Shown: positions 25,991 through 53,799 of the stretch, piece after piece
Position numbering within the stretch: position 1 is the first letter of the stretch
How the letters are laid out: each line of letters starts with the position of its first letter
Assembly: GCF_018449475.1 (NCBI RefSeq)
Contig: NZ_JAHCQH010000017.1
Location: 186,001-250,000, forward strand
Source: Ancylobacter radicis
GTDB lineage: Bacteria; Pseudomonadota; Alphaproteobacteria; Rhizobiales; Xanthobacteraceae
DNA: 64,000 bases
Direction of reading: 5' to 3'
Notes under the pieces: generated by a model
Told to the model about the DNA's origin: nothing
Seen by the model: the letters and a program-made list of their open reading frames with translations, nothing else
The model's database searches: none
Position numbers and translations under genes: made by a program

Positions 25991-28429
25991 TTAGCCGCGC
26001 AGCGCCGCGAGGCTCCCCGTCCGGGCGTGCTTGCCGGCGGCCGGCTCCTGCCGCGGCGCCAACGCATCGGCGGCATAGGAACGCTGTTTCTGGCGCGAGG
26101 GCGCCTCGTCATAAGTGGTGGTGCGCTGGCGGGCGATGCGGCCCGCCGCTCGAATGGCCGCCTCCATGCGATCGGGCGCGAATTCCTGGCCATGCATGCC
26201 GCCAGCGGCGCGGCTGATCGATTCATCCATCAGCGTGCCGCCGATGTCGTTCGCGCCGGCCTTCAGCGCGGCCACAATGCCGCCCTCGCCCAGCTTCACC
26301 CAAGACGCCTGGATGTTGGTGATGAGCGGGTTGAGCGCCAGCCGGCCGACCGCGTGCATCAGCAACGCCTCGCGCCGGCTCGGACCGGCGCGCGTGCCGC
26401 CCTTGAGGTATAAAGGTGCCTCCATATGCAGGAAGGGCAGCGGCACGAACTCGGTGATGCCGCCGGTTTCCGCCTGCAGGCGGCGCAGGCGCAGCAGATG
26501 GCGCGCCCAGTGATGATAGCCGTCGACATGGCCGAACATGATGGTCGATGTCGTCTTCAGGCCGACACGGTGCGCGGCGCCGATGATGGCCAGCCATTGC
26601 GCCGTATCGAGCTTGTCCGGGCAGATGATGGCCCGCACCTCGTCGTCGAGGATTTCCGCCGCCGTGCCCGGCAGCGTGCCAAGGCCCGCCTCCTTCAGCC
26701 GCGTGAGAAAATCCGGGATCGACAGGCCGAGCGTCGCGGCACCGTGCTGCACTTCCAGCGCGGAGAAGGCATGGACATGCATGTCCGGCACGGCCTGCTT
26801 CACCGCGCGGACAATGGCGAGGTAGGTTTCGCCGGAAAAATCCGGGTGAATGCCGCCCTGCATGCACACTTCGCTCGCCCCGCGCTGCCACGCCTCGATG
26901 GCGCGGCGCTGGATCTCGCCGAGGTCAAGCTCATAGGGCCGGCCACGCAGATGCTCGTGCTGGCGCCCTTTTGAGAACGCGCAAAAGCCGCAGCGATAGG
27001 CGCAGACATTGGTGTAATTGATGTTGCGGGTAACGACATAGGACACGGTCTCGCCGACCGTCTGGCGCCGCAACTCATCGGCCGCGTCGAACACCCGCTG
27101 GGCCCGCGCACCGCGCGCGTCGAACAGAGTGACGGTCTCGTCTTCCGCCAGTTCGCGGCCGGCAAAAGCCTTGTCGATGATGGCGTCGAGCCGGCTATCG
27201 GTCCCCGCCAGCGCGGGCGCCGCCGGCCATTCGACGAGGCTCGCCCCCTCCTCCTCGCCCACCCGCCAGGCGCTCTCATGAGCGAGGCCTGCGCCATCGG
27301 CGCGGCGCAGGACATGGGGCGCGACGTGCGGATGAAGCCAGGTCGCGCGCGCCGCAAGATGACCAGGATAGACCGCGAGGCGTGGGGCCAGAACCTTGCC
27401 CGCACGGGCGGTAGCCGCGCCGAGAGCCGCGAGCGCCGGCCAGGGCGCCTCGGGGTTCACATGATCCGGCGTGACCGGCGACACGCCGCCCCAGTCATTG
27501 ATTCCGGCGTCGATCAGCGCCTTCAGCCCCTCCGGCTGGAGATTGGGCGGCGCCTGAACCGACATGGCTGGACCGAGGATCAGCCGCGCCACCGCCACGG
27601 TCCACAGATGATCCTCCAGCGAGGGCTCCAGTGCCTCGGCCATCTTCGTGCCGGCCTTGGCGCGGAAATTCTGGATGATGACTTCCTGCACATGGCCGTG
27701 CCGCTCATGGCTGTCGCGGATCGCCAGCAGCGCCTCGACGCGCTCCTCCCGCGTCTCGCCTATGCCGATCAGCAGCCCCGTGGTGAAGGGCACGCGGGCG
27801 CGTCCGGCCGCCTCCAGCGTCGCGAGCCGGACCGGAGGCCGCTTGTCGGGCGAACCGAAATGCGGGCCGCCGCGCGCCGAGAGACGCTCGGCGGTGGTCT
27901 CGATCATCAGCCCCTGCGAGGCGGAGACCTCGCGCAGCCCGGCGAGATCGGCCTCGTCCATGACGCCGGCATTGAGATGCGGCAGCAGGCCGGTCTCCTT
28001 GAGGACCAGCGTGGCCATGGCCTTGAGGTATTCAAGTGTTGTCGCGTAGCCGAGCGCGGCCAGTTCCTCGCGAACCGCGCGATAACGCAGCTCCGGCTTG
28101 TCGCCGAGCGTGAACAGCGCCTCGTCGCAGCCGACGCGGGCGCCGGCGCGGGCAATCTCCAGCACCTCGTCGGGGGTAAGATAGGACCTCTGTCCTTTCC
28201 GGGGGGGATGCGCGAAGGTACAATAATGACACACGTCGCGGCAGAGCTGGGTCAGCGGGATGAACACCTTGCGCGACACGGTGACGGTCGTGCCGAAACC
28301 GGCGTCGCGCACCCGCGCTGCCGCCGCCATCAGGGCCGCAAGATCGGTCCGCGCGGCAAGGCCGAGGGCCTCATCGCGCGACAGCTGGGCGCCCGCGGCA
28401 ACCGCTCCCCAAGGCTCCCGCGCCGCCAC
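25991..28429 (-). CDS. fbiC: Bifunctional FO synthase (CofG-CofH fusion)
   Basis: FO synthase joins 5-amino-6-ribitylaminouracil and tyrosine to make the deazaflavin chromophore of F420. This 812-residue protein fuses two radical-SAM halves: an N-terminal CofG part with CRDVCHYCTFA (CxxxCxxC near 63-70) and a C-terminal CofH part with NVCAYRCGFCAFSKG near 480. The fused layout is the actinobacterial/proteobacterial form; archaea use two genes. The start is GTG 28427-28429, only 3 nt after the pxpA stop, so it is translated from the pxpA transcript. The other F420 genes lie at 50391-53799. The C-terminal 40 residues are basic and low-complexity. Confidence 0.95.
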   Translation of the reverse strand: MAAREPWGAVAAGAQLSRDEALGLAARTDLAALMAAAARVRDAGFGTTVTVSRKVFIPLTQLCRDVCHYCTFAHPPRKGQRSYLTPDEVLEIARAGARVGCDEALFTLGDKPELRYRAVREELAALGYATTLEYLKAMATLVLKETGLLPHLNAGVMDEADLAGLREVSASQGLMIETTAERLSARGGPHFGSPDKRPPVRLATLEAAGRARVPFTTGLLIGIGETREERVEALLAIRDSHERHGHVQEVIIQNFRAKAGTKMAEALEPSLEDHLWTVAVARLILGPAMSVQAPPNLQPEGLKALIDAGINDWGGVSPVTPDHVNPEAPWPALAALGAATARAGKVLAPRLAVYPGHLAARATWLHPHVAPHVLRRADGAGLAHESAWRVGEEEGASLVEWPAAPALAGTDSRLDAIIDKAFAGRELAEDETVTLFDARGARAQRVFDAADELRRQTVGETVSYVVTRNINYTNVCAYRCGFCAFSKGRQHEHLRGRPYELDLGEIQRRAIEAWQRGASEVCMQGGIHPDFSGETYLAIVRAVKQAVPDMHVHAFSALEVQHGAATLGLSIPDFLTRLKEAGLGTLPGTAAEILDDEVRAIICPDKLDTAQWLAIIGAAHRVGLKTTSTIMFGHVDGYHHWARHLLRLRRLQAETGGITEFVPLPFLHMEAPLYLKGGTRAGPSRREALLMHAVGRLALNPLITNIQASWVKLGEGGIVAALKAGANDIGGTLMDESISRAAGGMHGQEFAPDRMEAAIRAAGRIARQRTTTYDEAPSRQKQRSYAADALAPRQEPAAGKHARTGSLAALRG

Positions 28430-28432
28430 AGC

Positions 28433-29209
28433 TCAGGCCTTCATCAGCTCGGGAAGCGTGACCAGCTCGACGCCGGCGTCGCGTAACGCATCGCGGCAGG
28501 CGGCGGCGACGGCGATGGCGGTCGGCTCATCGCCATGGACGCAGAGCGAGTCGAACGCGGTCGGCATTTTCTTGCCGTTGACCGAGAGAATTTCGCCATC
28601 CAGCACCATACGAACGACACGCTCCGCCGCCACCGCCGGCTCCTTGATGACGGCCTGCGGATGGGTGCGCGTGAGCAGATTGCCCTCATCATCATAGAGG
28701 CGGTCGATGAAGGCCTCGCGCGCCAGCGGCAGGTCGAGCGCCAGCGCGGCCTTCTCCATCTGCGAACCGGAGAGGGCAAGATAATACAGCGTGGGATCGA
28801 CGGTCTTGATCGCCCGACCGATGGCCAAGGCATAATCGGCATCCACCGCCGCCATATTGTTCAGCGCGCCATGCGGCTTCACATGCGTGACCTTGGCCCC
28901 GGCATAGTTGGCCATGCCGATCAGCGCGGCGATCTGGTAGGCCACGAGATATTCGAGATCGGTGGCGCTCATGCGGATATGCCGACGCCCGAAACCCCAG
29001 ATATCGTTGAAGCCGGGATGGGCGCCGATCGAGACACCATTGGCCTGCGCCTGGAGGCACACATCGCGCATCACCGTCGCGTCTCCCGCGTGCAGGCCGC
29101 AGGCGACATTGACGCTCTGCACGATTTTCAGGATCTCGGCGTCATTGCCGATCTGATAGTGGCCATAGCCTTCGCCCATATCGGCGTTGATATTGATGCG
29201 CTGCGCCAC
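28433..29209 (-). CDS. pxpA: 5-oxoprolinase subunit A (LamB/YcsF family)
   Basis: The 258-residue product opens with RININADMGEGYGHYQIGNDAEI and contains VNVACGLHAGD and SIGAHPGFNDIWGFGRR, family hallmarks. PxpA works with PxpB and PxpC in ATP-dependent ring opening of 5-oxoproline to glutamate; paralogues may act on other lactams. GTG 29207-29209 is preceded by GGAGG. pxpB-pxpC are divergent across a 110-bp gap instead of in the same operon, while fbiC follows after 3 nt. Confidence 0.92.
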   Translation of the reverse strand: MAQRININADMGEGYGHYQIGNDAEILKIVQSVNVACGLHAGDATVMRDVCLQAQANGVSIGAHPGFNDIWGFGRRHIRMSATDLEYLVAYQIAALIGMANYAGAKVTHVKPHGALNNMAAVDADYALAIGRAIKTVDPTLYYLALSGSQMEKAALALDLPLAREAFIDRLYDDEGNLLTRTHPQAVIKEPAVAAERVVRMVLDGEILSVNGKKMPTAFDSLCVHGDEPTAIAVAAACRDALRDAGVELVTLPELMKA

Positions 29210-29319
29210 AGGAGCCTCCGATAGGTCAATTCAGACCACTATTAACACATTAGATAATAATGGATTTCAAGCTCAAACATACTAACATTAGGATGATTGC
29301 TGCAAGGGCGTGGGGATAG
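29210..29319. promoter_or_regulatory. Divergent AT-rich promoter region between pxpA-fbiC and pxpB-pxpC
   Basis: The region is strongly AT-rich against its GC-rich surroundings. It contains a palindrome CATTA-GATAA-TAATG (29248-29262), a plausible operator for coordinated control of both halves of the 5-oxoprolinase genes. I could not assign -35 and -10 boxes with certainty. Confidence 0.5.
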
Positions 29320-30093
29320 ATGGAGAACGCAGGCGCCAACAAGACGGGGGAAGGTGGAAAGCGGGCCATCGGCACGCTCTGCCGCTTCCTGCCCGTGGGC
29401 GACACGGCCTTTGCCGTGGAGTTCGGAAACGCGATCTCGCCCGACATAAACGCCCTGGTGCATCGCGCCGCAGCACTTCTGGCGACGGCGCCGCCCGAGG
29501 GGCTTGTGGAGACGGTTCCCACCTTCCGCTCGCTGCTGGTGCATTACGACCCCTGCCGCACCTCGGCGCAGGCGCTGCAAGCCGCTATCGCGGAACTTGA
29601 TCTCGGCGAGACCGGTGTCGTGACACCTCCGCGAACCTGGCGGCTGCCGGTCCTCTATGGCGGCGATGCGGGGCCGGATCTGGACGAGGTCGCCCGCGCC
29701 ACGGGGCTCTCGACCGCTGAGGTCGTGGCGCTGCATGCGGGGACGACCTACCGCGTCTATGTGCAGGGCTTCCTGCCCGGTTTTGCCTATCTCGGCGACC
29801 TGCCGGCGAGGCTGGACCTGCCGCGCCTGACCACCCCGCGCGTGCGGGTCCCTCCCGGCTCGGTCGCCATCGCCCAGCGGATGACGGGTGTGTACCCGAT
29901 TGAATCGCCCGGCGGCTGGCGGTTGATCGGCAACACGCCGATCCGATTTTTCGACCCGGCTAGCGCGCCGCCGACACTGTTCGCGCCGGGCGATGGGGTG
30001 CGCTTCGTGCCGGTGGAAGCCATCGAGCATGAGCGAATCCGCGCGGCCGTTACGCGCGGGGAGTACGCGCCGGAATGCGAGGCAACCCCATGA
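29320..30093 (+). CDS. pxpB: 5-oxoprolinase subunit B (KipI family)
   Basis: The 257-residue carboxyltransferase-domain subunit 1 protein carries FLPVGDTAFAVEFG at 21-34 and the conserved VYVQGFLPGFAYLGDLP and PGSVAIAQRMTGVYPIESPGGWRLIG, matching KipI/PxpB. It partners PxpC and PxpA in ATP-dependent lactam hydrolysis. GGGGATAG precedes ATG 29320. It overlaps pxpC by 4 nt (ATGA). Confidence 0.93.
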   Translation: MENAGANKTGEGGKRAIGTLCRFLPVGDTAFAVEFGNAISPDINALVHRAAALLATAPPEGLVETVPTFRSLLVHYDPCRTSAQALQAAIAELDLGETGVVTPPRTWRLPVLYGGDAGPDLDEVARATGLSTAEVVALHAGTTYRVYVQGFLPGFAYLGDLPARLDLPRLTTPRVRVPPGSVAIAQRMTGVYPIESPGGWRLIGNTPIRFFDPASAPPTLFAPGDGVRFVPVEAIEHERIRAAVTRGEYAPECEATP

Positions 30094-31127
30094 CGGCGCT
30101 GCGTATTCTCCAGCCGGGGCCCCAGACCAGCGTGCAGGATCGCGGGCGCATCGGCTTCCAGGCCTTCGGCGTGCCCGTATGCGGCGTACTAGACGCGGTG
30201 GCGCTGCGCCTCGCCAACGCGCTGGTCGGCAACCCCGCCACGGCCGCCGCGCTGGAAATGCGCCTTTCCGGACCTAGCTTTATCGCGGAGGGCGGCGCCG
30301 TGCGGATCGCGCTGGCCGGCGCCACGGCCCGCATCGATGTCAGCCACGACGGCGAGACGCGCGCTTTTCCGGGCTGGCGGGCGATCGAGGTGCCGGAGGG
30401 CGCGAGCGTACGGATCGGGGCGCTGGGCGGTAGCGGGTGCGCCATTCTTGCGATCGCTGGAGGCATCATGACACCTCTCGTCATGGGATCACGCTCGACC
30501 GACCTCAAAGGCCGGTTCGGTGGGATCGAGGGCCGTGCGCTGGCGGCCGGCGACGAGGTGCCGATCGACGCAAGCGACCTCTCCGGCCCCTGCCTCGAAC
30601 TGCCGCGACCGCCCGCGAGCGTCTTTTCAGCCACGCTGCGTGTGGTGATGGGACCCCAAGCCGAGGCCTTCACCGAGGCGGGGCGGGAGACCTTCCTCTC
30701 ATCCCCTTATCGAGTCTCCCGCGAGGCCGACCGGATGGGGATGCGCCTTGAGGGGCCGGCGCTCGGCTTCGTCAAAAGTGCGGACATCGTCTCGGACGGC
30801 ATCGCCACCGGCTCGATCCAGGTGCCGGGCTCCGGCCTGCCCATCATGCTGCTGGCCGACCATCAAACCATTGGCGGCTATGCCAAAATCGCCACCGTGA
30901 TTTCCGCCGACCTGCCGGCCGCCGGGCGCCTGCTGCCGGGCGCGGAGATACGCTTTGCGGCGGTGAGCGTGGCGGAGGCGGAGCAGGCGCGGCGGGAGCT
31001 GGAGAGCGAGATGGCGCGCCTGATCGCGAGCCTCGTCCCGGTGCGCGAGGGAGCACGGGTGGACATGGACGCGCTATGGCGTGCGAATCTGGTGTCCGGC
31101 GTCGTTTCGGCGCTGGAAACCGAGTAA
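30090..31127 (+). CDS. pxpC: 5-oxoprolinase subunit C (KipA family)
   Basis: The 345-residue carboxyltransferase-domain subunit 2 protein has ILQPGPQTSVQDRGRIGFQAFGVPVCGVLD at the N-terminus, MGPQAEAFTEAG near 189, and the conserved C-terminal LADHQTIGGYAKIATVISADLP. The start at 30090 overlaps the pxpB stop (ATGA); an in-frame start at 30075 adds five residues. It is followed by the GntR regulator after 68 bp. Confidence 0.93.
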   Translation: MTALRILQPGPQTSVQDRGRIGFQAFGVPVCGVLDAVALRLANALVGNPATAAALEMRLSGPSFIAEGGAVRIALAGATARIDVSHDGETRAFPGWRAIEVPEGASVRIGALGGSGCAILAIAGGIMTPLVMGSRSTDLKGRFGGIEGRALAAGDEVPIDASDLSGPCLELPRPPASVFSATLRVVMGPQAEAFTEAGRETFLSSPYRVSREADRMGMRLEGPALGFVKSADIVSDGIATGSIQVPGSGLPIMLLADHQTIGGYAKIATVISADLPAAGRLLPGAEIRFAAVSVAEAEQARRELESEMARLIASLVPVREGARVDMDALWRANLVSGVVSALETE

Positions 31128-31162
31128 CGGCGCGGGGTCGCGGATAGGATTACATGATACTG

Positions 31163-31178
31163 AAGATAGGAAGATCTT
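31163..31178. promoter_or_regulatory. AAGAT-N6-ATCTT inverted repeat upstream of the GntR gene
   Basis: AAGAT (31163-31167) and ATCTT (31174-31178) flank 6 nt, about 20 bp before the regulator's start. A related GAAGAT-N3-ATCTTC repeat lies at 36466-36480 between the two large-subunit genes. It could be an autoregulatory operator, but the half-site is short. Confidence 0.35.
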
Positions 31179-31195: not shown

Positions 31196-31987
31196 ATGAC
31201 GCCGCCCAGCGGCTCCATCGGAACCGACCTGCCCATGCTGAAAGACCACGCGGCCGCTCTGGCCAGCCCCGACTACCGGCGCAGCCCGGTACCGCGCTAT
31301 CTGCAGATCGCCGGCGTCATTCGCCGCCGGATCGAGGACGGGGTATGGGGCCCGAACGAGAAAATCTCGACACTGCAAGAGCTTGAGGCCGAGTTTCGGG
31401 TGGCTCGCGTCACCGTGCGGCAGGCTGTCGAGGTGCTGCAGAGCGAGGGGCTGGTGCGGCGTATCCAGGGCAAGGGGACGTTTGTCTCCGGCTCGGTGGA
31501 GGAAAAACGCTGGCTCAAGCTCGATCTGAAATGGCACTCGCTGGCCGGCACGATCGGCGCCAACGTGCCGCGATTCCTGCCGGTTTCCGCCAACCCGCCC
31601 GCCCCGGCGATCCGGCCGGAGGATGGCGAGACGGCATCATCCTACCGCTATCTGGAGAGCGTGCAGTCGCGGCGCGGGCAGCCCTATTCCTATGCCCGCG
31701 TGCATTTCGACGAGCGGCTCTATGCGCTGGCGCCGGAACGCTTCGACCGCGAGCCGACCATCAGCGTGGTGGCGACGCTGGAGGGCCTCACGGTGACGAA
31801 AGCCCGGCAATCCTTCATCGTCGGTACGGTGGAACCGCGCGTGGCCAATCTTCTGGCGACGGGAATCGGCTTTCCCACGGTCGAGGCGCATCTCGTGATC
31901 ACCGACGCGACGGGCGTGGTGATCTATGTCGCCGATATCATCTATCGCGGCGACTGCGTGCAGCTCGACGTTGACCTTCTCGGCTGA
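31196..31987 (+). CDS. GntR family transcriptional regulator (HutC/UTRA type)
   Basis: The 263-residue regulator has an N-terminal winged helix (about 30-100) with LQELEAEFRVARVTVRQAVEVLQSEGLVRRIQGKGTFV, and a C-terminal UTRA ligand-binding domain (about 115-260) ending VIYVADIIYRGDCVQLDVDL. HutC-type proteins are usually repressors released by a pathway metabolite. It follows pxpC by 68 bp and is the only DNA-binding regulator in the 16-39 kb island, so it is the leading candidate controller of the catabolic genes. Internal ATG at 31235 would shorten it by 13 residues. Confidence 0.92.
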   Translation: MTPPSGSIGTDLPMLKDHAAALASPDYRRSPVPRYLQIAGVIRRRIEDGVWGPNEKISTLQELEAEFRVARVTVRQAVEVLQSEGLVRRIQGKGTFVSGSVEEKRWLKLDLKWHSLAGTIGANVPRFLPVSANPPAPAIRPEDGETASSYRYLESVQSRRGQPYSYARVHFDERLYALAPERFDREPTISVVATLEGLTVTKARQSFIVGTVEPRVANLLATGIGFPTVEAHLVITDATGVVIYVADIIYRGDCVQLDVDLLG

Positions 31988-32008: not shown

Positions 32009-33196
32009 TTAGCCGCGCCCGAACAGGCGGGCGAGCCAGCCCTTGAGCAGGGACAGGACCAGCGAGCCGGCATCCAGCGGGGCGGCTTGAGGTGCCAAGA
32101 CACCTCCCTTGACCGCGCCATCGAGATTGGCGGCGAAGGCACCGGTGAGGCGGGCGGCGAGGTCGCGGGCGATGGCGCCACGGCTCATCTGGGCCAGCGG
32201 CCCCTGGAGCACATAGGCCACATCGACGCACACATGCGTGCCATTTTCGCTTTTTTCTTCAAGGCGATAGACCAGCCGCGCCTGCACCCGCGTGGCGCTC
32301 CTGGCATCCACGCCCCGCCCGTCAATGGCACCGGACCAGGTCGACGGATCCGCTGAGATCTGCCCGACGCCGCCGAACGCGGCCTGCATCGGGCCGAGCT
32401 TGACGCGCATTTCCGCCTTCAGGCTGCGCCCGTCCGACGGTTCGGAAAGGCTGGCGCCGGGTAGGCAGGCGATCACGCGCGCGGGGTCCTGAAAAAGCGC
32501 CCAGACCGTCGCACGGGGCGCGCCCACGTCGAATTCCTGAACGATTTCAATGGGATTGCGCAGCGGCTCGATGGTGAAGGCCGCATCTTCCGGCGCCGCG
32601 GCGGGCGCTTTCTGAGGTTCAATAATACCGATACGCGAGGTCGGCGGCACCGGGAGCGTCAGCGGCGAGGCATAAAGGGGCGGCGCGACCAGGGTGCCAC
32701 GGGTGACAAGAGGCGCCTCGCCCGCACGCTCGGCCGCAACCGATTGAATGGCCTTGATAATTCCGACATAGCCGGTGCAGCGGCAGAGATTTCCCGCCAG
32801 TTCGTGGCGGATCGCATCCGTGTCGAGACCGGGGCGGCGCAGCACGATGTCGCGCGCCATGACGAGCATGCCCGGCGTGCAGAATCCGCACTGCAAAGCG
32901 TGCTCGCGGGTGAACGCCGCACGCAGTTCGACCATCACGGGATCGTCGATAAGTCCTTCTATCGTCGTGATTTTTGCCCCCTCCAGCGCCACCGGAAAAG
33001 CGATGCAGGAGCGGGCGGGGGCGCCGTCTATGAGGATGGTGCAGGCGCCGCAGACGCCGTGCTCGCAGCCGAGATGGGTGCCGGTGAGGAGCAGATCCTC
33101 GCGCAGGAAATCGGCCAGGCTCTGGCGCGGCTCGACCTCGGCCTCGATGGGACGGCCATTGACCTCGATCGACAGGGCATGTGTCACGGCATTCAT
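32009..33196 (-). CDS. Fusion of Mo-hydroxylase [2Fe-2S] subunit with CoxG domain
   Basis: This 395-residue two-domain protein has a CoxS-type small subunit at residues 1-160, with GCEHGVCGACTILIDG, CGFCTPGM and CRCTGY. A Pro/Ala-rich linker (about 165-215) leads to a CoxG-like SRPBCC domain (about 220-370: IVQEFDVGAPRATVWALFQDPARVIACLPGA). It ends with LVLSLLKGWLARLFGRG, a short amphipathic tail that could touch the membrane. The first cluster encodes these two functions as separate genes (15486-16471). The start overlaps the FAD-subunit stop by 4 nt. It is last in the L1-FAD-fusion operon. Confidence 0.92.
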   Translation of the reverse strand: MNAVTHALSIEVNGRPIEAEVEPRQSLADFLREDLLLTGTHLGCEHGVCGACTILIDGAPARSCIAFPVALEGAKITTIEGLIDDPVMVELRAAFTREHALQCGFCTPGMLVMARDIVLRRPGLDTDAIRHELAGNLCRCTGYVGIIKAIQSVAAERAGEAPLVTRGTLVAPPLYASPLTLPVPPTSRIGIIEPQKAPAAAPEDAAFTIEPLRNPIEIVQEFDVGAPRATVWALFQDPARVIACLPGASLSEPSDGRSLKAEMRVKLGPMQAAFGGVGQISADPSTWSGAIDGRGVDARSATRVQARLVYRLEEKSENGTHVCVDVAYVLQGPLAQMSRGAIARDLAARLTGAFAANLDGAVKGGVLAPQAAPLDAGSLVLSLLKGWLARLFGRG

Positions 33197-45207: not shown

Positions 45208-45330
45208 CCGTCTGCGTGCTTCGAGACGCGGGGCTGCGCCCCGCTCCTCAGCATGACGGGGACCGGGCGGCGGGGGCGCTCCGTCATCCTGAGGCGCCCG
45301 CCACAGGCGGGCCTCGAAGGACGCAGACGG
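45208..45330. repeat. Palindromic repeat with 10-bp terminal inverted repeats
   Basis: CCGTCTGCGT (45208-45217) and ACGCAGACGG (45321-45330) are perfect inverted ends. Inside are TTCGAG, CTCAGCATGACGG, CCGTCATCCTGAGG and CCTCGAAGG. The GTCATCCTGAGG and CTCGAAGGA cores are shared with 46370-46478. It lies between the two permease genes of the ABC importer. Confidence 0.8.
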
Positions 45331-45356
45331 ACAGTCGCAAGGTTCATCACCATCCC

Positions 45357-46283: not shown

Positions 46284-46369
46284 GGGTTCATGCCCTCGTG
46301 GTCGTCGGAGCTGGGAAAGATGCCTCGCCCGCGTGCGGGAGAGGCGGGTCGCTGACTGCCTAGGCGGAA

Positions 46370-46478
46370 CGTCATCCTGAGGTGCCCGGCTTTTGCCGGG
46401 CCTCGAAGGATGGTCATCCGGGCGCGCCCGGTGGTTCCATTCTTCGAGGCGCGCTGACGCGCGCACCTCAGGATGACG
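46370..46478. repeat. Palindromic repeat with 16-bp inverted ends
   Basis: CGTCATCCTGAGGTGC (46370-46385) and GCACCTCAGGATGACG (46463-46478) are perfect inverted ends. Inner CCTCGAAGGATGG and CCATTCTTCGAGG halves are also complementary. It is the same family as 45208-45330. It lies between the binding-protein and first permease genes, so it could form a long mRNA hairpin tuning receptor-to-permease ratio. Confidence 0.85.
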
Positions 46479-46501
46479 GTGTTCCCGTCACAGCAGGCTG
46501 A

Positions 46502-47899
46502 TCACAGCAGGCATTTGGTGCAGAGCTTGAGCAGCTCGGCCTGGCCCTTCTTGGCGCCCTCCTCCGGGGAGAGCTTGCCGAGGCCGACTTCCTGCGCGAT
46601 GCCGCTCATCACGTCGTAGATCTCGTAGAATTTCGGCATCTTCGGCTTGGCCTCGGCGACGTCGAGGGTCGACTTCATCGCGGTGTAGAGCGTCTTGTTG
46701 GCGGCGCCGGTGATGGCCGGCAGCGCCCAGGAGCTTTCGCGGATCGGCACGCCGCCTTCACCCAGCGCGATCAGCTTGTCCTGCTGCTTCCGGTCAGCCA
46801 GCCACTGCAGGAAGATGAAGGTCGGCTCGGGGTTCTTCGAGGCGGCGCTGATGACGGTGACCGACGGCTCGGCCTCGGCGAAACGCTCCTTGGAGCCGGC
46901 CTTGATCGGGATCGGGCCATAGACGAACTGGCCCGCGTAAGGCGACACGCCCTTCTTGTCGACGCCGAGCACGAAGTCCGACCAGGCGATGGACTGGGCG
47001 GCGATGCCGTTGCCCATCACGGTCGGCACGTCGACCAGCGAGTATTCGGCGATGCCGGGCGGGGCATAGGTCCACAGCTCGCGCCACATCTTCAGCGCGG
47101 CGACCGTCTCCGGCGTGTCGAAGGTCGGGCGGCCCTCGGCGTCGATCAGGTTGCCGCCATAGTTCTTGACGAAGTTGTTCCACAGGGTCGGGAAGGTCGA
47201 GCCGCCCTTGATGCCTTCGAGCACGATCCCGTAGAAATCGCTCTCAAGCGGCTTGCCGGCGAGCTTTTCGCCCTTCTTGCGGGTGAAGAACTGCGCGATG
47301 TCGCGCATCTGTTCCATGGTTTCGGCGGGCGCGAGATCATAGCCATACTTGGCCTTGAAGGCCGCCTTCTCGTCCGCATTGCCCAGCAGGTCGGCGCGGG
47401 TCCAGTAGATCTGGTTGTAGTTCCAGTTGATGAAGGAGTATTGCTTGTCGCCGACGAAGGCCGCCGTCTTGAACGGGTTCTGGATGAAGTCCGAGGTGCC
47501 GAGATTGGGGTTGGAGAGCTTCGGGTTGGCGACCAGATCGTTGAGCGGCATGATCGCGCCGGCCGAGATCATCGGGCCGAGCTGGAAGCCGTGCAGCATG
47601 ATCGCGTCGTAATAGCCGCGACCGGACAGCATGTCGGCCTGGCCCTTGTTGATCACCTCGAAATGGTTCAGCAGCTCCCACTCGACCTTGATGCCGGTTT
47701 CCTTCTCGAATTCCGGGATGATCTTGGACAGCGTCTCCTGCAGCGGGGTGATCTCGTCGAGCACGCGGATGGTCGTGCCCTTATAGGGCTTGGCCGCTTC
47801 CGCGTAGAAACTGTCCTGCGCGCGGGCCGGCGCGAGCGGTGCGAGGAGCACCGTCGAGGCCGCCAAGGCGGCGGCGAAACACCTGTGAAGTCTCTTCAT
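46502..47899 (-). CDS. Carbohydrate-type ABC substrate-binding protein (family 1)
   Basis: The 465-residue periplasmic receptor has a signal peptide ending near ARAQD (residue 28), then TIRVLDEITPLQETLSKIIPEFEKETGIKVEWELLNHFE and FINWNYNQIYWTRADLLG. This is the family 1 solute-binding type that recognises oligosaccharides, polyols and glycerol derivatives. Two Cys near the C-terminus (LCTKCLL) could form a disulfide. It sits third in a five-gene importer after two ATPase genes. The ligand is unknown. Confidence 0.9.
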   Translation of the reverse strand: MKRLHRCFAAALAASTVLLAPLAPARAQDSFYAEAAKPYKGTTIRVLDEITPLQETLSKIIPEFEKETGIKVEWELLNHFEVINKGQADMLSGRGYYDAIMLHGFQLGPMISAGAIMPLNDLVANPKLSNPNLGTSDFIQNPFKTAAFVGDKQYSFINWNYNQIYWTRADLLGNADEKAAFKAKYGYDLAPAETMEQMRDIAQFFTRKKGEKLAGKPLESDFYGIVLEGIKGGSTFPTLWNNFVKNYGGNLIDAEGRPTFDTPETVAALKMWRELWTYAPPGIAEYSLVDVPTVMGNGIAAQSIAWSDFVLGVDKKGVSPYAGQFVYGPIPIKAGSKERFAEAEPSVTVISAASKNPEPTFIFLQWLADRKQQDKLIALGEGGVPIRESSWALPAITGAANKTLYTAMKSTLDVAEAKPKMPKFYEIYDVMSGIAQEVGLGKLSPEEGAKKGQAELLKLCTKCLL

Positions 47900-47940
47900 C
47901 GCTCTTTCCCTCTGGTTGGTCTGTTATCAGCGGCTCGTAG

Positions 47941-49113
47941 TCACGTTCCGGGCAGCGCGCGGCCCGTCGTCCCGTCGAACAGGGCAAGCCCCTCGCTCGG
48001 GAAAAGCAGTCCCACGCGTCGGCCGATGCCGCCCCCGGCATCGGCGCCGAGCGCGGCGGCGTTCGCCATACTCGTCTTGGCCTTGGCCAGCAGCGCGCCA
48101 AGGTCGAGCGTGACGATGGCGTGCTTGCCGAAGGGTTCGTTGGAATAGATCTCGGCCTCGGCCGCGCCTGTCGCGCCGTTCGGGGCAAAGGCGATGCCGT
48201 CCGGGCGCACGCCGAGGATGACGGAGGCGGACGAGGCCTGCTCCGCCGCCCGCGCCAGCGCCGCCGGCAGGGCCAGACGCAGGGCGCGGCGGGTGAAGAA
48301 CAGCGCGCCCCCTTCATGGACGAGGTCGCCCTCGATGAGGTTCATCGGCGGGTCGCCGAGCAGGCGGGCGACGCGCGCGCTGGCCGGGCGCAGCCAGATT
48401 TCCTCGGGCGTGCCGACCTGCTCGACGCGGCCCTGATCCATCACCACCACGCGGTCGCCGACCGACAGCGCCTCCATGCCGTCGGGCGTCGCCCACAGGC
48501 TCGGCGCGCTCTGGGCAGACAGGCGGCGGCGGATTTCGCCGCGCAGCTTGTGGCGCAGCTTGGCGTCGAGATGGGAGATCGGCTCATCGAGAATGAACAG
48601 GTCCGGTATCTGCACCAGCGCGCGGGCCAGCGCCACGCGCTGCTTCTGCCCGCCCGACAGGGCGCCCGGCAGGCGCTCGCCGAGATGGCGGATTTCCAGC
48701 AGCTCCAGCACCTCGTCGACGCGCTTGGCGGCCGCCGCCGGGTCCAGCCGGCCGCCGGGCGCCTGAAGCGGCGAGAGGGCGTTGCCGCGCACGCTGAGAT
48801 GAGGATAGAGCGCGTAGGATTCGAACATCAGCGCCACGCGGCGCTGCTGCGGGGGAATGCCGGCAAGGTCGCGCCCGGCCAGCGTCACGTTGCCGGCATC
48901 GGGCCGCTCCAGCCCGGCAAGGATGCGGCAGAAGGTGGATTTGCCGGCGCCCGAGGGGCCGGTGATGGCGAGCAGCTCGCCCGGCGCGATGTTGATGTCG
49001 AGGTCGCGCAGGGCGGTGATGATCTCGTTTTTACCCTTGGCCGAACTCTTGCCCTTGGCGAAGCTCTTGGTGATGCCACGGGCGACAAGACCCGTCCCGG
49101 TTTCCGCGTTCAT
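47941..49113 (-). CDS. Sugar-type ABC importer ATPase 2 with altered H-loop
   Basis: This 390-residue MalK/UgpC-like protein has Walker A GPSGAGKST near 50, signature LSGGQKQR, Walker B LFILDEPISHLDA, and a C-terminal regulatory (TOBE-like) domain. The switch histidine is replaced: the H-loop reads WATPDGMEAL where MalK has VTHDQ, and the Q-loop reads MFESYALYPHL (Gln to Glu). One composite ATP site may therefore be weak or regulatory, complemented by ATPase 1. Its start overlaps ATPase 1 by 4 nt. An extra Lys/Ser stretch (KGKSSAKGKN) follows the first strand. Confidence 0.9.
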   Translation of the reverse strand: MNAETGTGLVARGITKSFAKGKSSAKGKNEIITALRDLDINIAPGELLAITGPSGAGKSTFCRILAGLERPDAGNVTLAGRDLAGIPPQQRRVALMFESYALYPHLSVRGNALSPLQAPGGRLDPAAAAKRVDEVLELLEIRHLGERLPGALSGGQKQRVALARALVQIPDLFILDEPISHLDAKLRHKLRGEIRRRLSAQSAPSLWATPDGMEALSVGDRVVVMDQGRVEQVGTPEEIWLRPASARVARLLGDPPMNLIEGDLVHEGGALFFTRRALRLALPAALARAAEQASSASVILGVRPDGIAFAPNGATGAAEAEIYSNEPFGKHAIVTLDLGALLAKAKTSMANAAALGADAGGGIGRRVGLLFPSEGLALFDGTTGRALPGT

Positions 49114-50207
49114 GACAGCGCCTCCCGGTTGCGCCCGCTGGCGGCGTCGAAGATGAGCAGGCGCGCCAGGTCGATGCCGAGGGCCACCCGGTCCCCGGCC
49201 CGCCAGGGCGCGGGGCCGGCGATCTCGGCGATCAGCGTGCCGCCCGGACCATGCTCGGATTCCAGCGCCACGGTGAGCACGTCGGCATCGCCGCGCGGCT
49301 CGCGATAGATGATGCGCCCGTGCGCCTCGCCGGGCTGGTCCGGGGCGCTTACCGTGATGTTCTCGGGTCGGATGCCGGCGACGATCGCACCCTCCCCGGC
49401 GACGCGTGGCAGGCGCGCTTGCGGCAGCGCCGCCGCCCAGCCGGCACCGACCACGCAGCCGCCTTCGGCGAAGGCGGCGGGCATCAGGTTCATCGGCGGC
49501 TCGCCGATGAAATTGGCGACGAAGAGATTGGCCGGGCGCTCGTAAAGCTCCTGCGGCGGGCCGACCTGCTGAAGCACGCCGTGATTCATCACCGCCACCC
49601 GGTCGGCCATGGCGATGGCCTCGGTCTGGTCATGGGTGACGAGGATCGAGGTGACCTGGCGCAGCTTCTGCAGCCGCTTGATCTCGGCGCGCAGCTGCAC
49701 CTTCTGGTCGGCGTCGAGATGGGACAGCGGCTCGTCGAACAGGATGACTTCCGGGTCGCGCACCAGCGCCCGGCCGATCGAGACGCGCTGCATGGCGCCG
49801 CCGGAGAGCCCGCGCACCGGCTGGTCGGCCATCTGCCGCAGGCCGAGAAGCTGGAGCACCTCGCCGATGCGCTCGGCCGCCGGCTGGCCGGAGATGCCGC
49901 GCACCTTCAGCGGGAAGGCGACGTTCTCCCACACCGTCATCTGCGGGTAGAGGGCGTAGTCCTCGAACACCATGGCAATGTTGCGCTCGCCCGGCGCGAG
50001 GCGGGAGACCGGGCGCTCGCCGAAGAAGATTTCGCCGGCGGAGACGGTCTCGATGCCGGCGGCCATTTTGAGCGTGGTGCTCTTGCCGCAGCCGGAGGGG
50101 CCGAGCAGCGCGAGCATCTCGCCAGCGGCGCAGGCGAGGTCGAGCCGGCTCACCGCCTCCACCTCACCGTAACGCTTGAAGACCGACACGAAAGCGATTG
50201 ACGACAT
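49110..50207 (-). CDS. Sugar-type ABC importer ATPase 1
   Basis: This 365-residue MalK/UgpC-like ATPase has Walker A GPSGCGKST near 38, Q-loop position MVFEDYALYPQM, signature LSGGAMQRVSIGRAL, Walker B VILFDEPLSHLDA, the standard H-loop VTHDQTEAIAMADR, and a C-terminal regulatory domain. GGAG 7 nt before ATG 50207 decides the start. Importers with two distinct ATPases are known from rhizobial glycerol (GlpS/GlpT) systems, which this arrangement resembles. Confidence 0.92.
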   Translation of the reverse strand: MSSIAFVSVFKRYGEVEAVSRLDLACAAGEMLALLGPSGCGKSTTLKMAAGIETVSAGEIFFGERPVSRLAPGERNIAMVFEDYALYPQMTVWENVAFPLKVRGISGQPAAERIGEVLQLLGLRQMADQPVRGLSGGAMQRVSIGRALVRDPEVILFDEPLSHLDADQKVQLRAEIKRLQKLRQVTSILVTHDQTEAIAMADRVAVMNHGVLQQVGPPQELYERPANLFVANFIGEPPMNLMPAAFAEGGCVVGAGWAAALPQARLPRVAGEGAIVAGIRPENITVSAPDQPGEAHGRIIYREPRGDADVLTVALESEHGPGGTLIAEIAGPAPWRAGDRVALGIDLARLLIFDAASGRNREALS

Positions 50208-50390
50208 CCGGCACTCCGCAGGGGCTATGCCGATGAGCAATCCAAGTTCTGTGCCAAATTGTGCTGGTGTTTAGACACACTGGATAACGAGCACGGTTAG
50301 TCGTTTCCCGCCCGTCGATTATGCTCAAGAAAGATGCGCCGGCACGCCCCCTGCTGCCTTTCGCGGCATGCCCCGCGGGCACGCACGTTT

Positions 50391-51089
50391 TCAGGGTGTC
50401 GGCGACAGAAATCCGTCGTGCCGTTCCAGCAGCCGGCGGGTGTGCGATGCGGGGAGCAGGCGGGCCAGACCGGCGAGGTCCGCCGGCTGGTCGATGTCGT
50501 GGGCGAGGCCGGGAAAATCGGCCGCATCGTGACAGCGCAGGGCGAGACCCGCCTCCTGCGCCAGGGTGACATGAAGGGGAAAGCTGAGCGGGCCGAAGGC
50601 AAAGCGCAGCGCGGCCGGCGGCGAGACGAGGAGCGCGTTGGTGCCCTGCCCGTCATGGGCGGGAACAAGGCTGACCGCCCGGCCGGGCGGATGGGCGGCG
50701 ACCAGCCGGTCGATCTCCGCCGCACTGACTCCGGGAATGTCGGAGGGCAGGATCAGCATTCCCGCGCGCTGCTCGGCGGCGAGGCGGGTGGCGACATTGG
50801 CGACGGCCGCGTTGAGGCCCCGCACCTGCCGCTCGAACAGCAGCCGCGCGCCATAATGGCGGGCGAGGAGGCCGGCCTGCGGATCGGCGGTGATGACGAT
50901 GGTGCCGGCGAGCCGCGTCGACGCCGCCAGCGTCTCCAGCACGTCGCAGAGCATGGCGCGGACAAGATCGCGCCGCTGGTCGGCGGACAGGGCCGGCGCC
51001 AGCCGCTGCTTGGCCAGGGCGAAATCCTTGACCGGCACGACGGCGTACACGGTGCCGTCCATCAGGGGTGTGCCGCGCGGCGCCTTCAC
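50391..51089 (-). CDS. cofC: Phosphoenolpyruvate/2-phospholactate guanylyltransferase CofC (FbiD)
   Basis: CofC activates the three-carbon phospho acid with GTP to start the F420 side chain. This 232-residue nucleotidyltransferase-fold protein has VYAVVPVKDFALAKQRLAPAL near 14, the metal-binding LPSDIPGVS near 113, and GQGTNALLVSPP near 147. GTG 51089 overlaps the cofD stop (GTGA); ATG 51062 would give MDGTVYAVV but lacks a ribosome site. It is last in fgd-cofE-cofD-cofC. Whether it prefers 2-phospholactate, PEP or 3-phosphoglycerate cannot be told here. Confidence 0.92.
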   Translation of the reverse strand: MKAPRGTPLMDGTVYAVVPVKDFALAKQRLAPALSADQRRDLVRAMLCDVLETLAASTRLAGTIVITADPQAGLLARHYGARLLFERQVRGLNAAVANVATRLAAEQRAGMLILPSDIPGVSAAEIDRLVAAHPPGRAVSLVPAHDGQGTNALLVSPPAALRFAFGPLSFPLHVTLAQEAGLALRCHDAADFPGLAHDIDQPADLAGLARLLPASHTRRLLERHDGFLSPTP

Positions 51090-52033
51090 CCGCCCTGCCC
51101 CGCCTGGGCCAGCACGAAGCGGGCGAGACCGATCTTGTCCGCCAGGCTACGCATCAGCGTGGGGGCGGCGACCACGGAGAGGCCGTCGACCTCCAGCCCC
51201 GCATCGGCCTCGTCGACGATGAAGATGTCGATCAGTCCCTCATAATGCGCGGCGACCGTGGCGGCGGACGGGACAAGGCCGAGTTCCGTCATCATCTTCG
51301 CGGTCGGCCCCTTCACCGCCTGCCCGGCGATGATCGGCGAGACCGCGATCACCGGCACGCGGCAGGCGCCGATGGCGGCGCGCAGGCCGGGCACGGCGAG
51401 GATCGGATCGACGCTCAGATAGGGGTTGGACGGGCAGATGATGATGGCCGCCAATTCCGGGTCGGCCAGCGCCGCCGACGCCGCCGGGGCGAGCGTGGCG
51501 GCGGAGGCCCCGGCAAAGGCGAGGCCGACCACGCGCGGGCGGCACTGATGGCGGACGAAATAATGCTGGAAGTCGTACCAGCCCTCATCGGTCTCGACCT
51601 GGGTGCGGACCGGGGCGTCGCTCATGGGCACGATGGCGGAGGCGATGCCCAGCGTGCGGCGCAGATCATCCGTCACCTGCGAGAGGCTGGCGCCGGCATC
51701 GAGGCGCCGGGTGCGCTCGACATGAACCGCGAGGTCGCCATCGCCGAGCCTGAACCAGGTCTCGCCGCCGAGCTGTTCGAGCGCGGCCATGAAGGTCCAG
51801 GTCTCATCCCGCCGCCCCCAGCCGCGCACCGGGTCGTCGAGACCGGCGAGCGTGTAGAGCAGCGTGTCGATGTCGGGCGAAACATGCAGGCCGAGATGGC
51901 GGAAATCGTCGCCGGTATTGGCGATGATTGTGAGCTGGCCGGGCGCAAGCACGCGGTCGAGCCCCAAAGCGAGCTTCGCGCCGCCTATGCCGCCGGAGAG
52001 CGCGACGATCTTGCCGCCGAGGGCGCCACTCAT
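51086..52033 (-). CDS. cofD: 2-phospho-L-lactate transferase CofD (FbiA)
   Basis: CofD joins the activated three-carbon unit to FO, giving F420-0 or its dehydro form. The 315-residue protein opens with [17 protein letters not shown], has [29 protein letters not shown] near 36, and [17 protein letters not shown] near 200, all family signatures. It overlaps cofE and cofC by 4 nt on either side. Confidence 0.95.
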
Positions 52034-52788
52034 CGGAACAGGTCCTCGTTTTCGGGGCGGATCAGCTCGGCTGCCGGGCTGTCCGCCGCGCTCCAGCCGA
52101 GCCCGCGCAGCAGTACCACGGGTCGTGCCTCGGCCGCCGGGCCCATGAGCAGCGAGGCGCTGGCGGCGATCTCGTCGGCAAAGGCGATCATCGTCACCTG
52201 CAAGGGCCGCCCGTAAAGATCCGCCTCGCCGCGCCGGTCGACCAGCGCCGGCAGGCCGGCGGCGCCGATGGCGACCCCCGTGGTGCCGCGCCGCCAGGGA
52301 CGGCCGAAACTGTCATTGATCACGACCCCGACACGCGCCCCCTCCGGCGCGAGACGCGCGCGCAGCTTTTCGGCGCTGGCGTCCGGGTTCTCCGGCAGCA
52401 GCAGCGCAAAGCCGTCCTCCACATTGGACTGGTCGATGCCGGCATTGGCCATGATGAGGCCGAGACGATGCTCGACGATCAGCACATGCGGCCGGGCGCG
52501 CACGATGCGCCGGCTCTCCGACAGGATGAGTTCGACCAGGCGGGCGTCCTTGCGCACCTCCTGCGCCAGCCGCTGCGCCTCGGCCGAGGGGGTGACGTCG
52601 GCGAGCCGGACAAGGCGACCTTCCGCCTTGGAGACGATCTTCTGCGCCAGAACCAGAACGTCGCCATCCTGAAGCGCGAGGCCGGCGCGGGCGAGGGCCG
52701 CAGCGATCAGCGTGCCGAGATCATCGCCCGGCCGGATGAGCGGCAGCCCCTCAAGCGCGACCAGCCGGACCTCGCCCCCCACCGCCAT
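52030..52788 (-). CDS. cofE: F420-0:gamma-glutamyl ligase CofE
   Basis: CofE adds gamma-linked glutamates to F420-0 with GTP. The 252-residue protein has [19 protein letters not shown] near 45, [12 protein letters not shown] near 115, and [21 protein letters not shown] near 155. It stands alone, without the FMN-binding reductase domain fused to FbiB in mycobacteria; no such reductase is in the window. It starts 6 nt after fgd and overlaps cofD by 4 nt. Confidence 0.95.
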
Positions 52789-52794
52789 CGAGCG

Positions 52795-53799
52795 TCAGCC
52801 GGCGAGCGCGCGCAGGCGCGGCAGCACCTGCTCGGCATAAAGCCGCAGGAAGCGCGCCTGATCCTCGCCCGGCGCGTGAAACACGAGGTGGTTGAAGCCG
52901 AGGTCGAGATAGGGGCGGATGCGCGCCACATGCTCCTCCGGGTCGTCGGAGACGATCCAGCGTTTGGCGGCCCGCTCCAGCGGCAGCGCGTCGGACAGCT
53001 TCTCCATCTCCAGCGGGTCCTCCACGCTCATCTTCTCCTCCGGCGACAGGCTCAGCGCCGCCCAATGGCGGGTGTCCTGCAAGGCGCGGGCCTTGTCGGT
53101 GTCGAAGGAGACCTTCATCTCGATCATCCGGTCGTAACCCTCGCCCGAGCGGCCCGCCGCTTCAAGGCCGGCGGCGACGTTCGGCAGCAGCGTCTCGGAA
53201 TAAAGCTCCCACGCCTTGCCTGACGTGCAGATGAAGCCATCGCCGACCCGGCCGGCGAACTTCGCCACCATCGGCCCGGCCCCGGCGACATAGATCGGCA
53301 CCGGCACGTCCGGCCGGTCATAAATGGTGGCGCGCTCGGTGCGGTAGAACTCGCCCTCGAAGGTGATGCGCTCGCCGCTCCACAATTCCTTGATGAGCCG
53401 CACCGCCTCGCGCAGCCGGGCGAAGCGTTCCTTCATCTCCGGCCAGGGCGCGCCGGTGGCCGGCACCTCGTTGAGCGATTCACCCGAGCCGACACCCAGA
53501 ATCACACGGCCGGGGAAAAGCTGGCCGAGCGTGCCGAAGGCCTGCGCCACCATGGAGGGGTGGTGGCGGAAGGTCGGGGTGAGCACGCTGGTGCCCATGA
53601 TGATGCGCGAGGTGGAGGCGCCTACCGCCCCCATCCACGGAAACGCCGCCGGGGCATGGCCGCCGGTGTGCCGCCAGGGCTGGAAATGATCGCTGATGAA
53701 GACGGAATCGAAGCCGCAGACCTCCGCCTCCACCGCGAAATCCAGCAGCCTGCGCGAGTCGAACTGTTCCGCCGACGCCTTGTAGCCGAGCCTGAGCAC
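52795..53799 (-). CDS. fgd: F420-dependent glucose-6-phosphate dehydrogenase
   Basis: Fgd reduces F420 with glucose 6-phosphate. The 334-residue LLM protein is very close to mycobacterial FGD1 across its length: [19 protein letters not shown] with the catalytic His38, [10 protein letters not shown] with Glu107, DGFICTSGK, and [13 protein letters not shown]. The three phosphate-binding residues I recall for FGD1 (Lys198, Lys259, Arg283) are conserved as the Lys of TSGK, the Lys of EEKMS and the Arg of AKRW. GTG start with GGAGG 8 nt upstream. It heads the fgd-cofE-D-C operon. Confidence 0.93.

What the first reader, a model, noticed from the sequence alone, without database searches (positions are those of the whole stretch)
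25991..53799. Complete coenzyme F420 synthesis plus Fgd in an alphaproteobacterium, split over two loci
The sequence shows fbiC (CofG-CofH fusion) at 25991-28429 and fgd-cofE-cofD-cofC at 50391-53799. All core steps from FO to polyglutamylated F420 are covered, with an enzyme to reduce it. F420 is known from archaea, actinobacteria and scattered soil proteobacteria acquired by transfer. The interest is that the two loci bracket transporters and dehydrogenases, suggesting F420 serves a specific catabolic pathway here.
Basis: partly seen in the sequence, partly recalled or inferred. Interest (0 to 1): 0.8.

Follow-up and report, generated by a model that had tools for sequence, protein, structure and literature searches.

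The report
Bacterial catabolic cluster running on F420
The genes for the rare redox vitamin F420 in this soil bacterium appear wired to a conserved set of degradation genes shared by many unrelated bacteria, which gives F420 in these organisms a likely job and may link it to a plant-symbiosis trait already reported in Sinorhizobium.

Summary
In detail: CofGH and fgd-cofE-cofD-cofC are intact and score above curated cut-offs. F420 plus Fgd in Alphaproteobacteria is already in print. The new part lies around CofGH. From 16.8 to 36.5 kb sits a conserved cluster: Liv transporter, PLP enzyme, glutaconate-CoA-transferase-like pair, TIGR03619-type oxidoreductase (LLM), PxpABC-type proteins, GntR regulator, Mo-hydroxylase. 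LLM orthologues occur in 9 of 297 genomes of the order, all 9 cofD-positive (31 of 297 are). Of 75 LLM carriers checked in named records, 72 have cofD. A palindrome, TACTA-N4-TAGTA, precedes several cluster operons, the pxpA-cofGH operon in the window and the F420 operon in 12 other loci. So F420 synthesis appears co-regulated with one catabolic pathway. By strains and gene content, the same cluster appears to be the 26-kb Sinorhizobium meliloti region that a GWAS linked to nodule competitiveness. Corrections: CofC is of the PEP/2-phospholactate type and no FbiB/FbiE-type dehydro-F420 reductase was found, so 'complete' is unproven; and Fgd mostly replaces Fno. The substrate is unknown; a cyclic amide or N-heterocycle is my best guess.

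The parts
25991..28429 (-). CofGH (FbiC-type FO synthase)
   Evidence: NF006687 1145 bits, cut-off 1018; two CxxxCxxC motifs
50391..51089 (-). CofC (FbiD), Gly at the residue diagnostic for 3-PG use
   Evidence: TIGR03552 150 bits, cut-off 105; FGPLSF
51086..52033 (-). CofD (FbiA)
   Evidence: TIGR01819 282 bits, cut-off 257
52030..52788 (-). CofE, single domain
   Evidence: TIGR01916 300 bits, cut-off 181
52795..53799 (-). [quoted passage not shown]
   Evidence: TIGR03554 491 bits, cut-off 420; 5lxe 3.6e-141
24920..25867 (+). LLM oxidoreductase of the cluster, putative F420H2-dependent enzyme
   Evidence: TIGR03619 202 bits, cut-off 167; 9 of 9 carriers in the order are cofD-positive
23008..23997 (+). 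CoA-transferase-like subunit A
   Evidence: PF01144; in 76 of 80 LLM loci
23873..24790 (+). CoA-transferase-like subunit B
   Evidence: PF01144; glutaconate CoA-transferase 1poi 8.5e-50
21502..22995 (+). PLP-dependent enzyme, distant cysteine-synthase relative
   Evidence: PF00291; PDB best 4.5e-18
16826..18043 (+). Liv-type solute-binding protein
   Evidence: PF13458
18094..19937 (+). Liv-type permeases (two ORFs)
   Evidence: PF02653 twice
19136..21401 (+). Liv-type ATPases (the first lies in the 3' half of an over-long ORF)
   Evidence: PF00005 and PF12399
28433..29209 (-). LamB/YcsF, PxpA type; ends 3 bp before CofGH, probably one operon
   Evidence: PF03746, NF003814 326 bits, cut-off 226
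29320..30093 (+). PxpB-type carboxyltransferase-domain protein
   Evidence: TIGR00370 185 bits, cut-off 146
30075..31127 (+). PxpC-like carboxyltransferase-domain protein
   Evidence: TIGR00724 278 bits, cut-off 230; PxpC equivalog 219 bits, under its cut-off 500
31196..31987 (+). GntR-family regulator with UTRA domain
   Evidence: PF00392, PF07702; HutC/PhnF-like but under cut-offs
32009..33196 (-). Mo-hydroxylase 2Fe-2S subunit fused to CoxG
   Evidence: PF01799, PF06240
33193..34041 (-). Mo-hydroxylase FAD subunit
   Evidence: PF00941
34038..36455 (-). Mo-hydroxylase large subunit
   Evidence: PF20256, PF02738; quinoline 2-oxidoreductase 1t3q 5.8e-148
21436..21449 (+). operator-like site before the PLP-enzyme gene, 1 mismatch
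   Evidence: TACTA-N4-TAGTA
29280..29293 (+). operator-like site between pxpA-cofGH and pxpBC, 1 mismatch
31158..31171 (+). operator-like site before gntR, 2 mismatches
41213..50240 (-). genes downstream of cofC: two ABC ATPases, solute-binding protein, permeases, FmdA-like, 165-aa protein, GMC oxidoreductase
   Evidence: partly conserved beside fgd-cofEDC in Ancylobacter; relation to F420 not shown

Best explanation
F420 in this bacterium serves one inducible catabolic pathway. A Liv-type transporter imports an organic substrate. A molybdenum hydroxylase oxidises it. Fgd (Fno in most relatives) makes F420H2, which the LLM enzyme uses for a low-potential reduction. An oxoprolinase-type enzyme (PxpABC-like here) opens a cyclic amide. 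The CoA-transferase-like pair and the PLP enzyme pass the product to central metabolism. A GntR-family regulator acting at TACTA-N4-TAGTA controls several of these operons, and also the pxpA-cofGH operon, so the cofactor is made when the pathway is on. Shown by computation: gene content, conserved linkage, co-occurrence, shared sites. Inferred: that the LLM uses F420, that GntR binds the sites, the operons and the reaction order. Guessed: the cyclic-amide or N-heterocyclic substrate (about 0.4). The confidence below is for 'F420 serves this co-regulated pathway'.
For: LLM orthologues: 9 of 297 genomes of the order, all 9 among the 31 cofD-positive ones (hypergeometric 4.6e-10). Control LLM from the same genome: 36 of 297, 7 of them cofD-positive. 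Named LLM loci: 26 of 80 hold cofD within about 10 kb; of the other 54, 50 were sent, 49 searched, and 46 have it elsewhere. In the 80 loci: CoA-transferase A and B 76 each, PLP enzyme of either kind 66, any F420 gene 41, any Mo-hydroxylase subunit 47. Site: 3 in the window at up to 2 mismatches, expected 0.50, 0 of 100 shuffles reach 3; 46 hits in 66 non-Ancylobacter loci at up to 1 mismatch, shuffle mean 1.2, 45 of 46 in zones before cluster genes; 6 in 37 kb of S. meliloti R28 pSymA, each before the first gene of a cluster operon, the F420 operon included. Ring-opening step: PxpABC subunits in 35 loci, M20 hydrolase in 22, both in 0 of 80; a HyuA-HyuB fusion in 4. Mo-hydroxylase nearest quinoline 2-oxidoreductase among solved structures.
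Against: Fold and PDB searches do not separate F420 from FMN use for the LLM: FMN luciferase-like enzymes rank with Fgd, Adf and Mer. No site at up to 2 mismatches lies before fgd-cofEDC, livK or the Mo-hydroxylase in the window. 38 of 66 non-Ancylobacter loci show no site at up to 1 mismatch, though many are cut short. 3 of 49 genomes lack a cofD hit (L105, L127, L142, all MAGs). The PLP-enzyme family also occurs without cofD (18 of 29 carriers), once beside M20 and Mo-hydroxylase genes (L189), so part of the pathway may run without F420. Genomes are related, so counts are not independent events. The motif was read by eye from Ancylobacter, so those loci and the window are not independent tests. 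No expression or chemical data.
Confidence: 0.72

Rival explanations
1. The cluster's LLM is an FMN-dependent monooxygenase. It travels with F420 genes only because they were transferred together.
For: LLM folds are shared by FMN and F420 enzymes; the best fold and sequence matches are mixed.
Against: All 9 carriers in the order are cofD-positive. In 46 of 49 named genomes whose LLM locus lacks cofD within about 10 kb, cofD is still in the genome. TIGR03619 cut-off exceeded by the window protein; the family is matched by all 20 members scanned.
Confidence: 0.15
2. F420 is mainly for sugar or stress redox metabolism, as in mycobacteria: Fgd draws reductant from glucose 6-phosphate, and the operon sits with a UgpC/MalK-like ABC transporter and a GMC oxidoreductase.
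For: The ABC genes behind fgd-cofEDC are kept in the four Ancylobacter stretches read. No operator-like site before fgd.
Against: cofGH, the first committed gene, is 3 bp behind pxpA in the catabolic cluster. Fgd mostly stands in for Fno: Fno in 26 of 31 cofD-positive genomes, and 4 of the 5 without it carry Fgd. That points to a supply role for Fgd.
Confidence: 0.2
3. Mature F420 is not the end product. Without FbiB-C/FbiE, the cell makes dehydro-F420 (or uses 2-phospholactate from an unknown source).
For: TIGR03553 over cut-off in 0 of 31 cofD-positive genomes. CofC has Gly, the PEP/2-PL state, in 110 of 112 rows, the other two without letters at that column.
Against: Trace F420 was reported for two Alphaproteobacteria (PMC8498797, passages). 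Three nitroreductase-family ORFs besides the BluB-like one exist in the genome. No genome with a proven FbiE was run as a positive control.
Confidence: 0.3

Closest known systems
26-kb pSymA region of Sinorhizobium meliloti GR4, KH35c and KH46 found by GWAS for nodule competitiveness (PMC8407117)
   Same: Table 2 of the paper lists FbiA, FbiC, LivF, GctAB, a luciferase-family enzyme, Mo-hydroxylase, M20 and GntR functions. In GR4 and KH35c I find the cluster with LLM 57% identical and operator-like sites.
   Different: Uses Fno plus Pnt transhydrogenase and an M20 hydrolase instead of Fgd and PxpABC; the window's PLP enzyme was not found beside it, though the table names a diaminopropionate ammonia-lyase. 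In the parts read, the paper speaks of an 'fbi operon' and proposes no pathway or regulon. I saw no coordinates for the 26 kb, so the match rests on strains and gene content.
Alphaproteobacterial F420 producers with Fgd and Fno (review PMC8498797, passages)
   Same: Same cofactor pathway and reducing enzymes.
   Different: [quoted passage not shown] Here Fgd and Fno mostly alternate genome by genome, and a catabolic partner is proposed.
Actinobacterial F420-dependent catabolic reductases (picrate/nitrophenol, recalled)
   Same: Low-potential reduction of ring compounds in aerobes using F420H2.
   Different: Different enzymes and partner genes as recalled; none of those clusters was compared here.
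Reductive pyrimidine and aerobic nicotinate catabolism (recalled)
   Same: Ring reduction, then hydrolytic opening of a cyclic amide.
   Different: As recalled, those use NADPH or ferredoxin; here the reductase would be an F420 LLM. Not compared here.

Membership tests
F420 biosynthesis pathway | CofG/H, CofC, CofD, CofE present and intact | tested here: met
   All above NCBIfam cut-offs
F420 biosynthesis pathway | dehydro-F420-0 reductase (FbiB C-terminal domain or FbiE) if PEP is used | tested here: not met
   Best hit 73 bits against a 249.6-bit cut-off, a gene I read by eye as BluB between cobT- and cobS-like frames (no library run); 0 of 31 genomes over cut-off. No positive-control genome
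3PG-F420 pathway | Ser/Thr at the CofC position of M. rhizoxinica S162 (PMC8764529) | tested here: not met
   Gly in the window and in 110 of 112 rows
[quoted passage not shown]
   491 bits, cut-off 420
[quoted passage not shown]
   -
TIGR03619 F420-dependent LLM oxidoreductases | score above curated cut-off | tested here: met
   202 bits, cut-off 167
TIGR03619 F420-dependent LLM oxidoreductases | uses F420 rather than FMN | tested here: inconclusive
   Fold search mixed; co-occurrence favours F420
PxpABC 5-oxoprolinase | three-subunit set PxpA, PxpB, PxpC | tested here: inconclusive
   PxpA subfamily and PxpB models over cut-off; third subunit over TIGR00724 but under the PxpC equivalog cut-off, 219 vs 500
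PxpABC 5-oxoprolinase | acts on 5-oxoproline itself | not testable with these tools
   Could be another lactam
aerobic CO dehydrogenase | large subunit over CoxL cut-off | tested here: not met
   560 bits vs 950; 462 vs 991

The most novel reading that the evidence does not exclude
A widespread pathway in aerobic bacteria destroys a plant- or soil-derived N-heterocycle reductively: Mo-hydroxylation to a lactam, F420H2-dependent ring reduction by the LLM, then opening by interchangeable lactamases. Its GntR repressor also governs F420 synthesis. On Sinorhizobium symbiosis plasmids this pathway would underlie the GWAS-linked gain in nodule competitiveness.
Probability: 0.3. Interest if true: 0.85.

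Novelty: new variant of a known kind. Interest (0 to 1): 0.68.

Why it matters
[quoted passage not shown] This analysis offers one testable answer: a named set of genes, a candidate regulator with a candidate operator, and named carriers (Ancylobacter, Rhodoplanes, Azospirillum canadense, Sinorhizobium). It would also give a functional reading to a GWAS region for nodule competitiveness. It exposes a gap in the pathway, namely how dehydro-F420-0 is reduced where FbiB and FbiE are not found.

Tried and rejected
CO dehydrogenase reading of the Mo-hydroxylase: rejected, scores far below CoxL cut-offs.

3PG-F420 as the way round the missing FbiE: rejected on the CofC residue.

PLP enzyme as the marker of the pathway: weak, 18 of its 29 carriers lack cofD. 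Of 9 carriers inspected where it lies apart from the cluster (8 cofD-negative, 1 cofD-positive), none shows the CoA-transferase pair or LLM beside it; L189, L191 and L195 do show Mo-hydroxylase genes, and L189 an M20 gene.

CoA-transferase B: at 58% identity or more in the nine LLM genomes plus one cofD-negative genome, G245; weaker paralogues in 26 others.

One regulator for both window loci: no TACTA-N4-TAGTA site before fgd. A different conserved element lies there.

Fold search of the LLM model (pLDDT 91): does not tell F420 from FMN.

Sigma-70 and terminator scans: near chance.

Literature: ten searches. No listed title or abstract start describes this cluster as a pathway; PMC8407117 lists its functions. 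PMC8498797 and PMC6279831: passages seen. PMC8764529: outline with abstract, passages and one section. PMC8407117: passages and the first parts of sections 7 and 9; its supplements and second parts not seen. All other papers: search listing only.

Limits on the counts: ORF picking in scripts used codon-position GC and may miscall starts. Many of the 80 loci are cut by contig ends, so absences there mean little. One search clustered 67 of 80 loci (13 close Ancylobacter-group rows dropped). Three weak cofD hits (G232, G247, G283) were dropped and G084, 0.6 bits under the cut-off, was kept, giving 31; two of the dropped (G247, G283) carry the control LLM. rows are not de-duplicated.
Full report
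Observation. The five F420 genes are real and intact at the stated coordinates. CofC, CofD, CofE and Fgd align to solved relatives. The window lies at 186-250 kb of contig 9 of a 4.2-Mb genome that is 99.97% complete. By the LLM scan its nearest named relatives are Ancylobacter species.

What is known already.

Distribution. Among 297 genomes of the order, 34 have any cofD match and 31 a convincing one. The one other listed genome of the same genus has none. Of nine other listed genomes of the family, one has a match, and that copy carries an in-frame stop.

Fgd and Fno. Of the 31 cofD-positive genomes, 5 have Fgd and 26 have Fno. The five without Fno are this genome and three of one genus, all with Fgd, plus the one with the broken cofD. 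One genome has both. Fisher's exact test gives 0.0008, with the caveat that three of the Fgd carriers share a genus. Fgd thus mostly replaces Fno.

The missing step. CofE here has no nitroreductase domain. TIGR03553 finds only a 73-bit hit, to a gene that I read by eye as BluB, and nothing over cut-off in 31 genomes. CofC has Gly at the position where Ser or Thr marks 3-PG use (PMC8764529, passages). The rows were not de-duplicated. Either 2-phospholactate is used, or an unrecognised reductase acts on dehydro-F420-0, or dehydro-F420 is the product. No FbiE-bearing genome was available as a positive control.

A conserved cluster around CofGH. Comparing the cofD neighbourhoods with the window showed that genes beside CofGH recur at 44-75% identity in other families of the order. 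These are the PLP enzyme, the CoA-transferase-like pair, the LLM, LamB/YcsF with PxpB and PxpC, GntR and the Mo-hydroxylase. A scan of a collection of 84,980 species genomes with the LLM alignment gave the best 80 of 255 related stretches: Alpha- and Betaproteobacteria, a MAG labelled Gammaproteobacteria, and MAGs labelled Nitrospinota, Tectomicrobia, Binatia and others. In these loci the CoA-transferase pair is present in 76, a PLP enzyme of either kind in 66, a Liv component in 53, a Mo-hydroxylase subunit in 47 and an F420 gene in 41. Fourteen of the 80 are Ancylobacter or close kin.

Co-occurrence. LLM orthologues are in 9 of 297 genomes, nine different genera, the others 58-75% identical to the window's, and all cofD-positive (hypergeometric 4.6e-10). 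Another LLM of the same genome, used as a control, is in 36 of 297, of which 7 are cofD-positive. In named records, 26 loci contain cofD. Of the 54 others, 50 were sent, 49 searched, and 46 have cofD elsewhere. Four Ancylobacter-group loci were not sent. The three without are MAGs.

Interchangeable ring opening. PxpABC subunits are in 35 loci and an M20 hydrolase in 22, never together. Outside Ancylobacter the figures are 22 and 22 of 66, overlap 0, Fisher 1.5e-5. Four loci carry a HyuA-HyuB fusion; the one run against NCBIfam resembles caprolactamase, below that model's cut-off; one of the four loci also has the M20 gene. Twenty loci show none of the three. PxpABC and HyuA-HyuB are both known as amide- or lactam-opening families (recalled), which suggests a cyclic-amide intermediate. 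The Mo-hydroxylase is closest among solved structures to quinoline 2-oxidoreductase, which oxidises the carbon next to a ring nitrogen (recalled).

Regulation. Reading Ancylobacter promoters side by side gave TACTA-N4-TAGTA. In the window it occurs three times at up to 2 mismatches, all between genes of the cluster. The site at 29280 lies in the divergent region between pxpA and pxpB, and pxpA ends 3 bp before cofGH, so cofGH is probably read from it. Outside Ancylobacter the motif was not trained: 46 hits at up to 1 mismatch against a shuffle mean of 1.2 (20 shuffles, maximum 4), 45 of 46 in zones upstream of cluster genes that cover 26% of bases. These hits fall in 28 of the 66 loci; 38 have none. 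In 23 cofD loci of other kinds there was 1 hit. In 12 non-Ancylobacter loci the site precedes a run of genes that carries the F420 genes. Assigning it to the GntR protein is inference.

Sinorhizobium. The LLM is on 11 of 72,556 plasmids at E up to 1e-60, all Sinorhizobium, including those of strains GR4 and KH35c. Strain R28 shows the layout liv - npdG - (cofE, seen by tblastn) - cofD - cofC - cofGH - CoA-transferase pair - LLM - M20 - pnt - Mo-hydroxylase - binding protein, with gntR nearby. The window's PLP enzyme was not found there. In R28 six operator-like sites in 37 kb at up to 2 mismatches each precede the first gene of a cluster operon, and no shuffle of 200 reached six. GR4 shows the same six; KH35c shows five, of which one (2 mismatches, at 5317 of L217) is not before a mapped cluster gene. 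A GWAS had tied a 26-kb pSymA region, present among its strains only in GR4, KH35c and KH46, to nodule competitiveness, and these functions stand in its table (PMC8407117, parts of sections 7 and 9). The authors say the role of F420 in symbiotic competition deserves further attention. I saw no coordinates for the 26 kb, so the identity rests on strains and gene content; KH46 was not examined.

Second locus. In Ancylobacter-group genomes, cofD lies 22-27 kb from the LLM on what is by length the same contig in 6 of 10, and on another contig in 4. fgd is beside cofE-D-C in 7 of 10. In the four such stretches read at length the ABC genes follow in all; FmdA is in 2 of the 3 that reach that far, and GMC in both that reach that far. 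Their link to F420 is unproven.

Verdict. The cofactor genes are ordinary members of a known pathway. The conserved, apparently co-regulated catabolic cluster that they serve, and its match to the Sinorhizobium competitiveness region, are the finding.

Noticed in passing
L055, L056, L057, L060, L061, L066, L067, L068 and others: A second kind of alphaproteobacterial F420 locus: separate CofG- and CofH-like genes and a different LLM (both named by eye), CofD, Fno, often CofC and CofE; in L055 also an amidohydrolase and an NMT1/THI5-type binding protein. Possibly another F420 pathway.
   Followed up: partly
L028 / L064: cofD with an in-frame TAG in another genus of the same family, where Fno and Fgd were not found either: looks like F420 loss.
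   Followed up: no
L207, L208, L209: Three of ten Ancylobacter-group genomes have a lone divergent cofD without fgd, cofE or cofC beside it, near another LLM; in L207 an M24 peptidase-like gene and a class-III aminotransferase accompany them.
   Followed up: partly
53795-53900 and L210-L213: Conserved element upstream of fgd, roughly CATATTGTGCTG followed by TATCAC(T/C)CTAT with variation, unlike the cluster's palindrome.
   Followed up: no
L210 and L213: A further weak LLM match (28-31%) beside the FmdA gene of the second locus; not seen in the window.
   Followed up: no
24800-24900: Short inverted repeats (two with CTCCCC/GGGGAG arms) between the CoA-transferase B gene and the LLM gene.
   Followed up: no
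14674-16654 and 36596-38908: A second set of Mo-hydroxylase genes split over both ends of the cluster: FAD and 2Fe-2S subunits with CoxG at one end, a large subunit at the other.
   Followed up: no
L111, L113, L115, L120, L140: Nitrospinota-like versions of the cluster add UbiD-family decarboxylases, a second LLM and a cyclase-family gene.
   Followed up: no
L121, L138, L141: Cupriavidus/Burkholderiaceae versions add a biotin-dependent acyl-CoA carboxylase and Pnt transhydrogenase, hinting at a CoA-bound product and at NADPH as the electron source.
   Followed up: no
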